Assembly: GCA_951799445.1 (NCBI GenBank)
Contig: OX637288.1
Coordinates: 33,025,288-33,089,287, forward strand
DNA length: 64,000 bases
DNA from: Pseudisothecium myosuroides
Taxonomy: Eukaryota; Streptophyta; Bryopsida; Hypnales; Lembophyllaceae
Direction: 5' to 3'
In this document: piece by piece, positions 10,054 through 61,986 of the stretch
Layout of the letters: each line of letters opens with the position of its first letter
How positions within the stretch are numbered: the first letter of the stretch is position 1
The notes under the pieces: model-generated
Told to the model about the DNA's origin: nothing
What the model saw: the letters and a program-made list of their open reading frames with translations, nothing else
Database searches by the model: none
Position numbers and translations under genes: made by a program

Positions 10054-10985
10054 TTAACCCCTAAAGGACCAAGGCTTTTTTTCTGCCAAAAAACACTCAA
10101 AACTGCCATTTCTATAGCAAAAAGTAAAAAAAATTGAAAACTGTTTTTTTCCACATCTAACCGTAGGATCTGACACCTAACTAGTATGAGAGTGTGTGGA
10201 AAAAATTTCAGAATTTTTGACCGCACAAATTGCAAGATATCCGCGTTTAAAGTGAAAAAAACAAGTTTTTCAGCACATTGCGGGACTGGATTTTTTGACT
10301 TTGAACATTTTTAACTTAAAATTTTTGCACTACAGTGTTTTGAGCTTTAAATCTTTATAGTGGAGAATTGAGTTGAGAGTCTAGGAAAAATAAAAAAACT
10401 TAATTATCATTCTTAAAAAAAATTGTTAAGTAGAAGTAGGTATGAGATAGAAGGAAAATCTAAAATATTCATATATTTTAAATGGAATTAAATTGCACTA
10501 ATTCCAATGGTGAGATTGTTCTAGCAAGTAATATAAACCACGCAAAAAAAAAAAAATTGAAAAATATGAAAAATTGCATTCAGAAATGAATCCTACAAGT
10601 TATTTTTTTCAAGACGATGCTCTAACTACCCGAAAAACAAGAATGTCCATAACTTTCTCATAACATATCCAAATGAAATGAATCAAAGTTTTCCAGATAG
10701 GCAAAAATATAATCTATGAGAAAAAAATATCAAAAAAAAAAATTCAAATTTTTGTCCATTTTTTTTTTGCTGCCCGAGCTGCCCCGCGTCCCCTGTTTTG
10801 AGCTTATTTGGTCATAACTTTTGTTCCCGGGCACCGATTGTGAAAAAAATTATATTTCCACAAAGCTCATCAGTTTTTCTATCTCCAAAAAAAGCTTCAA
10901 AAAATCACGACAAAATTTCAGCCCGTAGGTACCTGCCTGAAAACGCATTTGTCCCCCGAAGGGACAACAGTCCTTTAGGGGTTAA
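10054..10985. mobile_element. TTAA-bounded non-autonomous element, family A copy 1 (piggyBac-like ends)
   Basis: The segment opens TTAA-CCCCTAAAGGAC and closes GTCCTTTAGGGG-TTAA, a perfect 12-base TIR with a TTAA on both sides; total length is 932 bases including both TTAA. The interior shows no long frame. It is clearly related to 35464-36051 (inverted orientation) and 60653-61986: all share AAAACACTCAAAACTGCCAT-like sequence near one end and TAACTTTTGYTCYYRGGCAY near the other. TTAA targets plus TIRs beginning CCC are the known signature of piggyBac elements. No transposase is present, so the superfamily is inference. Confidence 0.8.
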
Positions 10986-18505: not shown

Positions 18506-23499
<4,994 letters not shown>

Positions 23500-35399: not shown

Positions 35400-36262
35400 T
35401 TAAGGTGGGCACCCAAAAATGCACCATTGACCCATTATTGCCATTGTCGCTCTGTATACATCTTTAACCCCTAAAGTCCCATTGGCCCTACGGGGGCCAA
35501 AATGCAAGTTCAGGTAGGCTCACATGGTCTCAATATTCATCATAATTTTCTAAAACTTCTTATAAAGTTAGAAAAACACATAAGTTTCTTGGGAATATAA
35601 TTTTTATTTCAATCGATGCCCGGAAGCAAAAGTTATTGCACAAAAAGCCAAATATGGAGGTCGGCGGGCAGCCCAAAAAAAATCACAAAAAGTCAAAATA
35701 ATTTTTTTAGTTTTTTTTTCTTAAAGTATTATATTTTTGTCTACATGTAAAACTTTGATTCATTCTATTTGGACTAGTGATGAGAAAGTTATGGACAATC
35801 TTGTTTTTCGGGCAATCTAAGTAGTTCTTGAAAAAAAAACTTTTTACCCAACTTTGAATGCTAATATCTTCCAATCTGTATAGTCAAATTTGATGAAATT
35901 TTTACCACATGATCTCAGACAAGTGAAGTACAAGATCCTATAGTTAGATTCTAAAAAAAATGTTTTTTTTGCTTTCATGGATGAATGCAACAGAAATGGT
36001 AGTTTAGAGTGGTTTTTGACAGAAAAATAGCCTTGGGACTTTAGGGGTTAAAATCAATATCTACCTACTTCGAAGAAAACTCTACCCAATTTTTTTGACC
36101 CTTTGTAACTTTTGCATATGATTGAAATGTTGCGTTCTCTAGGGCATTGGAATTTTATTTAACTTGCCAACAAAAAAATATGAAAATTTGACCAATCTAA
36201 TAATACCGGCAGTAATTAGGCATAGTAGCAAAAAGTGTTGATTTGGGGGTTGCCCACCTTAA
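35400..36262. mobile_element. AGGTGGG-type inverted-repeat element, copy 1, interrupted by a TTAA element
   Basis: The left end TTTAAGGTGGGCACCCAAA and right end TTTGGGGGTTGCCCACCTTAA are inverted copies. The element is split by the complete family A copy at 35464-36051, leaving about 275 bases of its own sequence. Confidence 0.65.
35464..36051. mobile_element. TTAA-bounded element, family A copy 2 (inverted relative to copy 1)
   Basis: It opens TTAA-CCCCTAAAGTCCCA and closes TGGGACTTTAGGGG-TTAA, a perfect 14-base TIR. The reverse complement shows CAAGGCTATTTTTCTGTC, AAAACCACTCTAAACTACC and CCGGGCATCGATTG, matching the order in 10054-10985. It is shorter than copy 1 (588 versus 932 bases). 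Confidence 0.85.
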
Positions 36263-37789
36263 ACAGTGGCAATAAATTATTGCCATGTTTGCCCCTCAAA
36301 TCTCTTCTTGAGATAGGCATGAATGTTCATTTCTAAGTCATACCAAAGTTTGAAGTTAATCTCAAACTTGGAATCAAACTTGGAAGGTCATGGAAAGTAG
36401 CTATGTTCGGCATAGTTTAAATAAATAAAAAGGTTAAAGGTTTAGGGTTTAGGATTTAGAATTCAAGTTAGCTCTAAATGAAAAATGCATAAAAATTGTG
36501 TGAATTAGGTGTGTGATATGTGTAGCAATTGCTAAGCATTTATTTTTCTTTCTAGTACAAAATGACTTGTTGAAAACCTAAATATGTTCAAAAAGTTCAA
36601 TCATGTGAAAGGAAAATATTTGTTTATATATTTGGCATGTGTAATATGCACCTAATTTAAGTCATATCCATACGTTTATCGCATACCAACAACACCAATC
36701 TTTCAATCTGTACAAACAAAATGCAATTATTTTTGTAGCCTTTAAGTTTGAATTGCTACAATAGTAGTTTTAATAAACCATGCATGGTCTCTTTGCTATT
36801 TCAAGAATGTATTTTGCAATGTTGAATCACCACTTTGTCTAGCAATACAAAAAGAAATGAGCACTTGAATTCACCTGATTTCTATAATAAGAGATTAATT
36901 CCATAATAATGCCATTGCTAATGAGAATATGAGGATTTATAAAAAGCCTCCAAGAATTGTATGCAAATTTTAAAAATAAAATGTATGCTCTATATACTCT
37001 TTCCCCCCTTAAAGACTAGAGGTAGTCCAAATTTCTAGATGTAGTATAAAATACAATTTAGAATAATAATTTAATAGTGACTCTCCTACGATAGTTGTAA
37101 AATATGATTCGTAGATCATATCCATACGGGTAGATCAACTACGCTAGAATACAAACCAAGATTTTTCAATAAAATTTGAAGCCAAAAATTAAAGTTTTAT
37201 TTTGAAATCAATTTTAGACTAAATATTTGTGATTTTCACAAGAATCTTTTTCATTTAAGTTCAAAATATTAAGTTCTAATCATGTTAATTTTTGAAGATT
37301 TTTATTTTACTTCTTTATATACATTGACTGAACTATTCTAAAGGGTCATTTTTTGAACTGAAATAGTTATTTTTTTAGGATGGAACAACCAATATCCTTT
37401 AAACAAAGGAATATTTGCAAAGCAAAGTCTTCAAAATCTATACCATACAAATGTTAAAGAACTAACAAAAGAATCTTCAAAAAAATTGATGGATAAAAAA
37501 AATGCATTTGTACATGCTTGGGGTTTGTTTGCATTCATTCATTGTTCAAGATTTGAATGTCTGGTCCTTTAGGGGGTAAAAGAAGATGCATTATGCAAAG
37601 AGGTTGTGATAATAAACTAAGCAAGATGTCAAAGTAGTCATTTGAAGTTTGTGGCCCACATCCGTCTTCCCCCAACTAAGGATAAATGTAAAAAATTACC
37701 TCTATTTTGTGGTTGCTTAGTGTCCCGTATTCATCACCTTTCCTACTATGTAAGTTAGGAGGCTTGAACTTAGACCTGGCATTAAAAGC
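36263..37789. other. AT-rich intergenic DNA, nothing recognised
   Basis: No exon is supported. GTTTAGGGTTTAGG near 36439 is a short telomere-like word. GTCCTTTAGGGGGTAAAAG near 37565 looks like a worn right end of a TTAA-type element whose left end I could not find. Confidence 0.5.
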
Positions 37790-44219: not shown

Positions 44220-44586
44220 AGGGAGGCAACCCATTTCTGACCACTTAAGCAGTTACACGTATCTGCAGGACGGGTTTCTTCAATGGGGAAATTTTCCCGT
44301 GTGCAGAAATAGAGTTTGGAAGGTTTCCATAATTTTTCAGATTTTTATTTCTTCAAACATAATTAATTACTATGAATTTTTCAGCTAAAGAATATGTTCG
44401 ACCCATATTAGTCATATAGACTTTCCTATTTCCAACCAAGGGTTGGTTGCAATATTGAGAGTCTTGTAGATAATCATAATGCCGGGAACTACGTTATAAT
44501 TGATCACTATTCATCTCATCTTGCACAAAAAGATAGTAGCCTACATTGGCAGAATGAGGGGTTGATCAGGAATGGGTTGCTTTCCA
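44220..44586. mobile_element. AGG-ended MITE just upstream of the fibrillin gene (family M copy 1)
   Basis: The left end GGGAGGCAACCCATTTCTGA and right end CAGGAATGGGTTGCTTTCC are inverted copies with few mismatches, next to TA. The interior is related to the nested element at 61505-61929: ACTTAAGCAGTT versus ATTTAAGCAATT, then a GGAAATTTTYCC stretch. Non-coding, about 367 bases. Confidence 0.65.
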
Positions 44587-60652: not shown

Positions 60653-61986
60653 TTAATTCCTACAATTTTGAGGTCATTTTTCGTCAAAAACCACTCAAAA
60701 CTGTCATTTTCAATATAAACAATAAAATTTTAAACATTTGATTATTTTGCATATATAACTTAGAGTCTTGTACTAGGGTAGTATAAGAATGTCTGGAAGA
60801 AATTTCAAAATCTTTGACCATATCAATCATGCTTTTAAAGTGAAGAAAATAATTTTTTTTGCTCCCAATTTGACTAGATTATAAGACTTTGAATCCTCTT
60901 AACATAATTTTTTTGGACTATAGATTGTGAATATAAGTTTTTATATTTTGAAGAATTGAGTTGAGGGTTTGGAAATTCCCCTTCTTGATTTTCATTCTTT
61001 AAAAAATTGTTAAGTTGACGTAGGTGTAAGATAGAAGGAAAAACTAAATTGTTGATAGCTCTAAGATGGAATTGAAACACAGTATTAACACACTAATCTC
61101 AATGGTGAGATTTTTCTAGAAAACAAACTAAACCATATGAAGTTTTTTTTAATTTTTTTAAATTGAATACATAAACGGATCCAATACATTATTTTCTCAT
61201 GAATTTGTTAAGATTGCCTGTAAAACAAGAAGCTTTATAACTTTCACATCACTTATCCAAAGAGAATGAATAAAATCTTTCCAAATTGAAAAATATAATA
61301 TATATAAAATATATTTAAAAAATAAATATTTCAATGTTTTTTTAATATTTTGCTATCCACCCTTGCATGTTTTGGGTTTATTGTAGCATAACTTTTGCTC
61401 TTAGGCACTGATTGAAATCAAAATTGTATTCTTCAAAAGTTAATCAATTTTCCTATCTTGAAAAAAAACTCAAAAAATCTTCCCAAAAATTGAGATCATA
61501 GGTAAGGTAGAAGCACCACTAGTCAATCATTTAAGCAATTTTGGAGCAAATCGTGAATAGTATAAGGTGATGGAAATTTTTCCCATGTATGAAGATAGGA
61601 AATATGGGCATTGCAAAAAAATTAGACTTTTATTTCCAAAATCAAAATTAATGTGAATTTTGGGAACCAAAAAGTTCACTTCACCAATATAGCCAATGTC
61701 TAGAGTCTTCTAATTCCAATCATTCAAGAACAACTTTCCCGCTCATTACTTTTTACTTTCTTGCTCACTACTTTGAGACATGTGTTATAACCTTATTAGT
61801 CCCAATCTTGAAAAGGACCAAAAAAACTCATTTCCAACTTCCCTTGGAAATTTGTTCTAACCTTAGTTGAAAATATTGCACCCCTGCAAGTTGGATACTG
61901 GGTGTGGTTGACTACTAGTGCTTCTACCTTATATGCCTAAAGTCCCAAGAATCCCCCAAGGGAACTTTGGGGACTTTAGAGGTTAA
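60653..61986. mobile_element. TTAA-bounded element, family A copy 3, worn and carrying a nested MITE
   Basis: It begins TTAA-TTCCTACAA and ends GGACTTTAGAGG-TTAA. The interior aligns by landmarks with 10054-10985: AAAACCACTCAAAACTGTCA, TAGCATAACTTTTGCTC and ATAGGTA before the break, then CCTAAAGTCCCAAGAAT after it. The break is the MITE at 61505-61929; without it the copy is about 907 bases, close to the 932 of copy 1. Confidence 0.75.
61505..61929. mobile_element. AGGTAGAAGCAC-ended MITE nested in a TTAA element (family M copy 2), TSD TA
   Basis: The left end AGGTAGAAGCACCACTAGTC and right end GACTACTAGTGCTTCTACCT are inverted with few mismatches. TA flanks both sides (61503-61504 and 61930-61931). 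Removing it restores the family A sequence ATAGGTA-TGCC, which supports the boundaries. It is related to 44220-44586. Confidence 0.8.

What the first reader, a model, noticed from the sequence alone, without database searches (positions are those of the whole stretch)
10054..10985. A plant family of TTAA-flanked elements with CCCCTAAAG ends: piggyBac-like signature
Three copies of one family (10054-10985, 35464-36051, 60653-61986) all have TTAA on both sides; the two sharp copies have perfect 12-14 base TIRs starting CCCC. TTAA targets and CCC-starting termini are the established signature of piggyBac transposons, which are rarely discussed in plants. If true, the genome must have, or have had, a TTAA-specific transposase.
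Basis: partly seen in the sequence, partly recalled or inferred. Interest (0 to 1): 0.75.

Follow-up and report, generated by a model that had tools for sequence, protein, structure and literature searches.

The report
Native piggyBac transposons in a bryophyte
The window carries short, gene-less copies of a jumping-DNA family (piggyBac) best known from animals; this bryophyte-like plant genome holds very many of them and also near-identical full-length copies that encode the piggyBac enzyme, so the family probably moved recently in this plant.

Summary
Observation and interpretation both hold. Copies 10054-10985 and 35464-36051 are sharp TTAA-flanked elements with perfect 12-bp and 14-bp TIRs; the third (60653-61986) is a decayed relative whose left end has lost CCCC. 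In the 388-Mb genome the 13-mer TTAACCCCTAAAG occurs 27,720 times, against 12 for the reversed control. The genome has 899 candidates for piggyBac transposase (PF13843); all 116 scored pass the cut-off. Five types of 5.4-6.2 kb element with TTAA-CCCC ends enclose such a transposase; one (C5:31905448-31911073) shares both ends with copy 1 at 71-72% identity. Five copies of another type, 99.9-100% identical over 4.1 kb, sit at five TTAA sites with unrelated surroundings. Paralogous empty sites show one four-base slot where the filled site has two TTAA. A 19-bp palindrome at bp 15-33 of one end matches the place and length of the site bound by the Cys-rich domain of insect piggyBac. LBD genes make the host a land plant, most like bryophytes. 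Known kind; unusual host, number and intactness. The direct parent of the window copies was not found, and present mobility is inferred.

The parts
10054..10985 (+). Copy 1: non-autonomous piggyBac element, 924 bp plus TTAA on both sides
   Evidence: 15 relatives at 93-97% fetched with the same ends; both ends homologous to the C5 autonomous element
10058..10069 (+). Left TIR of copy 1, CCCCTAAAGGAC
   Evidence: arms 10054-10069 and 10970-10985, 100% complementary (TTAA included)
10970..10981 (-). Right TIR of copy 1
10949..10967 (.). 19-bp palindrome TTGTCCC(CCGAA)GGGACAA at bp 15-33 of the right end; proposed site for the Cys-rich domain of the transposase
   Evidence: Sequence: 14 of 15 fetched relatives keep a stem of 6 bp or more, L072 does not; role inferred from PMC7351741 passages
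35464..36051 (-). Copy 2: non-autonomous piggyBac element, 580 bp plus TTAA on both sides, reversed relative to copy 1
   Evidence: 86% identical over 220 bp to the downstream end of the C10 autonomous element, 74% over 223 bp to that of the C5 element; paralogous empty sites at 70% and 67%
35468..35481 (+). Left TIR of copy 2, CCCCTAAAGTCCCA
36034..36047 (-). Right TIR of copy 2
35482..35500 (.). 19-bp palindrome TTGGCCC(TACGG)GGGCCAA at bp 15-33 of the left end of copy 2
60653..61986 (+). Copy 3: decayed relative of copy 1; right end recognisable (TTAA-CCTCTAAAGTCCCC read inward), left end degenerate, nested TIR element inside
44222..44328 (-). Unoccupied paralogue of the target site of L068, a close relative of copy 1: single TTAA
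   Evidence: 88.8% identity over 107 nt across the junction
37417..37538 (+). Unoccupied paralogue of the target site of the L001 element: single slot reading TTCA
   Evidence: 77% identity over 122 nt

Best explanation
The window copies are internally deleted, non-autonomous piggyBac elements (MITE-like), moved in trans by piggyBac transposases encoded by longer elements in the same plant genome. Mechanism, by analogy with known piggyBac: the transposase recognises the CCCCTAAAG inverted repeats, docks a dimer of its C-terminal Cys-rich domain on the 19-bp palindrome inside one end, cuts the element out with TTAA overhangs and inserts it at another TTAA, which is duplicated. Shown here: the ends, TTAA on both sides, paralogous empty sites with one slot, DDD transposases inside elements with the same kind of ends, and homology of both ends of copy 1 to one such element. 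Inferred: cross-mobilisation, binding of the palindrome, seamless excision, present-day activity.
For: 27,720 exact ends against 12. With the four flanking bases left open (first base A, G or T) 33,037 sites against 1,566 background, so 84% are exactly TTAA. 116 of 116 scored PF13843 matches over the cut-off; 0 of 14 control genomes. Autonomous elements with TTAA-CCCC at both ends on C11, C2, C1, C10 and C5, frames of 589-1091 aa without stops. At 15 of 15 ends predicted for further copies, TTAA-CCCC lay within 18 bases of the predicted place. C10-type transposase matches T. ni piggyBac 6x67, E 1.1e-29, and piggyBat 9c0f, 7.7e-28; the DDD positions align by my reading. Empty site in L008: 96.8% over 125 nt, one TTAA; L068: 88.8% over 107 nt, one TTAA. 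Both ends of copy 1 homologous to the C5 element. Palindrome (PMC7351741).
Against: The link between the window copies and an autonomous element is homology at 71-86%, not near-identity; the direct parent was not found. For copy 2 only the downstream end matched the C5 element. The first five autonomous elements were delimited by looking for TTAACC, so their TTAA is not an independent test. In four of the six empty-site comparisons the slot is not TTAA itself: TTCA for L001, TTGA for L072, CCAA in both paralogues of copy 2, and no clear slot for L078. Palindrome lost in L072 and not seen in the same place in copy 3. No expression or mobility data.
Confidence: 0.95

Rival explanations
1. Tc1/mariner (Stowaway-like) elements with a TA duplication and ends ACCCC...GGGGT that lie in T-TA-A surroundings.
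For: A single filled or empty site cannot tell TTAA duplicated around CCCC...GGGG from TA duplicated around ACCCC...GGGGT inside TTAA; both read the same.
Against: A TA duplication leaves the outer T and A free, but 27,720 of 33,037 sites have all four bases, and in 16 aligned loci the outer T and A are kept in 13-16 while the next bases fall to 5-10. Elements with such ends encode PF13843, not a mariner transposase.
Confidence: 0.02
2. PIF/Harbinger (Tourist-like) elements with a TTA or TAA duplication.
For: TTA and TAA are contained in TTAA; such elements are common in plants (PMC10004981 passage).
Against: A three-base duplication would make the element unsymmetrical by one base; the TIRs are symmetrical around four bases, the slot in the L008 and L068 empty sites is a full TTAA, and the enclosed transposase is PF13843.
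Confidence: 0.01
3. The elements are true piggyBac derivatives but fossils: the transposases of the intact lineages do not act on copy-1-type ends, which were spread by a parent now lost.
For: No autonomous element nearer than 71-86% to the window copies was found; the 40 best relatives of copy 1 are 92-97% identical to it, itself aside, older than the near-identical autonomous copies.
Against: Only 30 of the 116 scored transposase loci were fetched, so the parent may simply not have been looked at; ends are alike across types.
Confidence: 0.3
4. The piggyBac stretches are contamination, for instance from an animal, in a plant assembly.
For: piggyBac is better known from animals; the transposase search returned mostly unnamed metagenome proteins, with a butterfly as the only organism named.
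Against: Transposase matches lie on all 11 large contigs, ten of which also carry full-length relatives of copy 1, and LOB-domain genes lie on nine of those contigs.
Confidence: 0.01

Closest known systems
Trichoplusia ni piggyBac (transposase structure 6x67; PMC7351741, passages seen)
   Same: TTAA target and duplication, DDD transposase related in sequence (E 1.1e-29), Cys-rich C-terminus, unequal ends, 19-bp palindrome at nearly the same place in one end (bp 15-33 here, bp 17-33 there)
   Different: Plant host; TIR CCCCTAAAG...; elements of 5.4-6.2 kb with frames up to 1091 aa; an upstream ORF in three of the five types; no G+C-rich palindrome seen in the first 62 nt of most of the other ends, whereas insect piggyBac has the internal repeat in both ends
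piggyBat (9c0f)
   Same: Related transposase, E 7.7e-28
   Different: Bat element (host recalled); ends not compared here
piggyBac entries in plant repeat lists (fern table PMC6890710; angiosperm MITE list PMC10004981; passages seen)
   Same: Same superfamily name in land plants
   Different: The fern table gives 1,230 copies, 122 kb, 0.00% of the assembly; the passages seen show no intact transposase. Here 27,720 exact ends and near-identical elements with long open frames are seen

Membership tests
piggyBac superfamily | TTAA target, duplicated on insertion | tested here: met
   27,720 of 33,037 ends; 15 of 15 predicted ends; one full TTAA in the L008 and L068 empty sites, mutated slots in others
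piggyBac superfamily | Short TIR starting CCC (recalled) | tested here: met
   left end of copy 3 has lost it
piggyBac superfamily | DDE_Tnp_1_7 transposase with DDD triad in autonomous members | tested here: met
   triad by reading of the alignment to 6x67. Met for elements with the same kind of ends, not for the window copies, which have no transposase
piggyBac superfamily | C-terminal Cys-rich domain | tested here: met
   Cys-rich C-termini visible in the frames; by eye, no Pfam match to the zinc-ribbon family was returned
piggyBac superfamily | Palindromic internal repeat for the Cys-rich domain, unequal ends | tested here: inconclusive
   Palindrome present in one end of copies 1, 2 and most relatives; binding not testable here
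piggyBac superfamily | Seamless excision | not testable with these tools
   Needs an excision assay or allele comparison
Tc1/mariner (Stowaway) | TA duplication with free neighbours | tested here: not met
   Outer T and A fixed
PIF/Harbinger (Tourist) | 3-bp TTA/TAA duplication and Harbinger transposase | tested here: not met
   Four-base symmetrical flanks, full TTAA in two empty sites, PF13843 inside. A Harbinger search of the genome was not made

The most novel reading that the evidence does not exclude
A land-plant lineage in which piggyBac is still mobile and has built a very large DNA-transposon population through several co-existing autonomous lineages, some with their own extra upstream ORF, all keeping the logic of the insect element (TTAA, unequal ends, Cys-rich-domain palindrome): a native plant piggyBac system that could serve footprint-free excision in plants.
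Probability: 0.45. Interest if true: 0.72.

Novelty: new member of a known kind. Interest (0 to 1): 0.55.

Why it matters
Insect piggyBac is used as a seamless excision tool in rice, tobacco and chrysanthemum, and a review of that work says that all DNA transposons found in plants leave a footprint (PMC10905368, passages). A land plant with its own near-identical piggyBac elements with open frames, and a very large number of passive copies, would make it testable whether plants host seamless transposition naturally. It would also give a graded series of insertions for asking how and when this superfamily reached and spread in bryophytes.

Tried and rejected
Tc1/mariner and Harbinger readings were rejected (see rivals). 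I first took the C10 element (C10:10309112-10315270) as the parent of copy 2: its right end matches at 86% over 220 bp, but the other similar stretch lies inside the element at 67% and has no recognisable end, so it counts as a relative only; the C5 element was the better match in architecture. An ORF upstream of the transposase in three types had no Pfam match and one database relative at 73%; its role is open. Paper searches on piggyBac with moss, bryophyte, Physcomitrium, Marchantia and Viridiplantae gave no report of native bryophyte piggyBac in the titles and abstract starts listed; the moss-genome hit that I opened held the word 'piggybacking'. Most subscription papers are not in that library; a 2017 survey of the superfamily that I looked up was not held. 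A structure prediction was not made, since the sequence match to 6x67 was enough.

Full report
OBSERVATION. Copies 1 and 2 have the structure described, with perfect 12-bp and 14-bp TIRs inside TTAA. Copy 3 is a decayed relative (68% over 876 bp) with one recognisable end and a nested TIR element. CCCCTAAAG with up to one mismatch is threefold over shuffles in the window (31 against 10.0).

GENOME-WIDE. The window lies at C2:33025288-33089287 of an assembly of 387.9 Mb in 222 contigs. TTAACCCCTAAAG occurs 27,720 times (13,904 + 13,816) against 12 for the pattern read backwards. With the four bases before CCCCTAAAG left open (the first only A, G or T) there are 33,037 sites against 1,566 background, so 84% are exactly TTAA; the listed sites that are not TTAA are mostly one base away from it, but some, such as GCTA, are not (my reading of the list, which shows only the first places). 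If each element gives two ends, 27,720 exact ends stand for roughly 14,000 elements; that is an estimate. With copy 1 as query there were 9,020 first-look candidates, 40 of which were scored; all 40, copy 1 among them, are full length at 92-100%.

BOUNDARIES. In 16 loci (copy 1 and 15 relatives) the four TTAA columns are kept in 15-16 of 16 on the left and 13-15 on the right, while the 30 columns outside fall to 5-10 of 16. Departures inside the border are point or one-base changes (for instance L065, L069, L070).

EMPTY SITES. These are paralogous sites in fetched sequence, not alleles. In one search, 9 candidate elements were paired (one of them, in the C10 region, spurious); 8 had flanks long enough to join, and 2 (L001, L008) had a good junction-spanning match in about 240 kb. 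In one search, 16 were tested and 3 (L068, L072, L078) had one. Copy 2, with only a weak match, was tried again and gave two. Copy 1 gave none. Best case: the 932-bp element in L008 sits in one arm of a palindrome, and the other arm is 96.8% identical over 125 nt with a single TTAA. L068 against window 44328-44222: 88.8% over 107 nt, single TTAA. L072 against L065: 91.0% over 111 nt, single slot reading TTGA. L001 against window 37417-37538: 77% over 122 nt, slot TTCA. Copy 2 against L068 (70% over 141 nt) and L040 (67% over 94 nt): no extra bases, slot CCAA in both. L078: several matches at 72-81% without a clear slot. So the four-base length is borne out repeatedly, and the sequence TTAA in the unoccupied site in two.

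TRANSPOSASE. PF13843 gave 899 candidates; 116 were scored and all 116 pass the cut-off, best 1.7e-83; 0 of 14 control genomes match. Elements with both ends read: C11:11602571-11608136 (5,566 bp, 780-aa frame), C2:3387245-3392658 (5,414 bp, 1056 aa), C1:12692817-12698448 (5,632 bp, 1091 aa), C10:10309112-10315270 (6,159 bp, 589 aa), C5:31905448-31911073 (5,626 bp, 758 aa); frames are stop to stop and introns were not resolved. These ends were found by looking for TTAACC, so they are not independent tests. Independent: for four further copies of the C2 type (both ends), one of the C10 type (both ends) and five of the C1 type (downstream end) I fetched small pieces at predicted places, and 15 of 15 held TTAA-CCCC, 11 of them at the exact base and the others 1, 1, 2 and 18 bases off. 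Outer flanks of 60 nt at these and the C2 and C1 copies show no similarity to one another, except the two flanks of the C3 copy (84% over 49 nt). The five C2-type copies are 99.9-100% identical over 4,116 bp, which points to recent movement. Of the 30 transposase loci fetched, many others carry stops or shorter frames. The C10-type protein matches 6x67 (T. ni piggyBac, E 1.1e-29) and 9c0f (piggyBat, 7.7e-28); the Asp residues D268, D346, D447 named in PMC7351741 align with Asp by my reading.

LINK TO THE WINDOW COPIES. The C5 element has an upstream end with a palindrome and a downstream end without an equal one, as copies 1 and 2 do. Copy 1 1-204 matches its downstream end at 72% and copy 1 783-932 its upstream end at 71%; copy 2 368-588 matches the downstream end at 74%, its other end did not match at the threshold. 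The element of L008 is likewise related to the C11 type (72% over 380 bp). The direct parent of copies 1 and 2 was not found; 30 of 116 scored loci were fetched.

PALINDROME. In copy 1, copy 2 and a further copy in the C2 region one end holds a 19-bp dyad at bp 15-33 (arms of 7, centre of 5); the C5 element has arms of 6 at bp 17-31; the C1-type upstream end has a different dyad; copy 3 has none in that place. Of 15 relatives of copy 1, 14 keep a stem of 6 bp or more and L072 does not. In copies 1 and 2 the arms differ in step (GTCCC/GGGAC against GGCCC/GGGCC). Stems at the other end are mostly T-run/A-run; exceptions are the copy in the C2 region, the C5 element and L077. In T. ni piggyBac a dimer of the Cys-rich domain binds a 19-bp palindromic internal repeat, bp 17-33 of one end (PMC7351741, passages). 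The same role here is inference.

HOST. LOB domain: 22 matches from 25 candidates. The 214-aa LBD protein of L045 has an unnamed relative at 97%; its best named relatives are Marchantia paleacea (73% over 77%), Physcomitrium patens (74% over 82%), Riccia sorocarpa, Calypogeia fissa and Sphagnum jensenii (best 120 of 3,279 listed). So a bryophyte is likeliest; 11 large contigs would suit many mosses (recalled), but moss against liverwort is not settled. Transposase matches lie on all 11.

LITERATURE. Passages seen say that piggyBac-like elements occur in fungi, plants and metazoans (PMC8086355; PMC10813416, abstract), list PiggyBac among seven angiosperm MITE superfamilies (PMC10004981) and among plant superfamilies (PMC10794571), and give 0.00% PiggyBac in a fern (PMC6890710). 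So piggyBac in plants is on record by name. In ten searches, whose listings I saw, I met no account of abundant, near-intact piggyBac in a bryophyte; most subscription papers are outside that library.

VERDICT. Ordinary in kind (non-autonomous piggyBac elements), unusual in host, number and in the near-identical autonomous copies alongside.

Noticed in passing
window 61503-61931: Nested element of about 430 bp inside copy 3, with 27-nt inverted repeats 89% complementary (TAAGGTAGAAGCACC...); it seems to lie between TA and TA, so perhaps Tc1/mariner-like (by eye).
   Followed up: no
C2:3387245-3392658, C1:12692817-12698448, C11:11602571-11608136: An upstream ORF with a shared domain of about 90 aa (FYRQxAxxLG...WPD). 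In the C1 and C2 types it ends 13-16 nt before the first ATG of the transposase frame, in the frame one base back. No Pfam match, one database relative.
   Followed up: partly
window 10058-10066 and other ends: The TIR core CCCTAAA equals the unit of the common plant telomere repeat (recalled); probably coincidence.
   Followed up: no
L008 1370-1500 and 2433-2500: A near-perfect palindromic repeat of some 130-160 bp that served as target of the L008 element; it looks like a member of another hairpin-like repeat family.
   Followed up: no
window 22020-22559 (-): Open frame resembling an exon of an NDR/AGC-type protein kinase (my reading of the translation; not searched).
   Followed up: no
C1:12692817-12692820: The C1-type autonomous copy shares its TTAA with the end of another CCCCTAAAG element: two elements back to back at one TTAA.
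   Followed up: no
C10:10310990-10311860: Stretch similar to the interior of copies 1 and 2 (66-67%) inside the C10-type autonomous element, shared by its near-identical copies: an old nested copy or a homologous part.
   Followed up: partly
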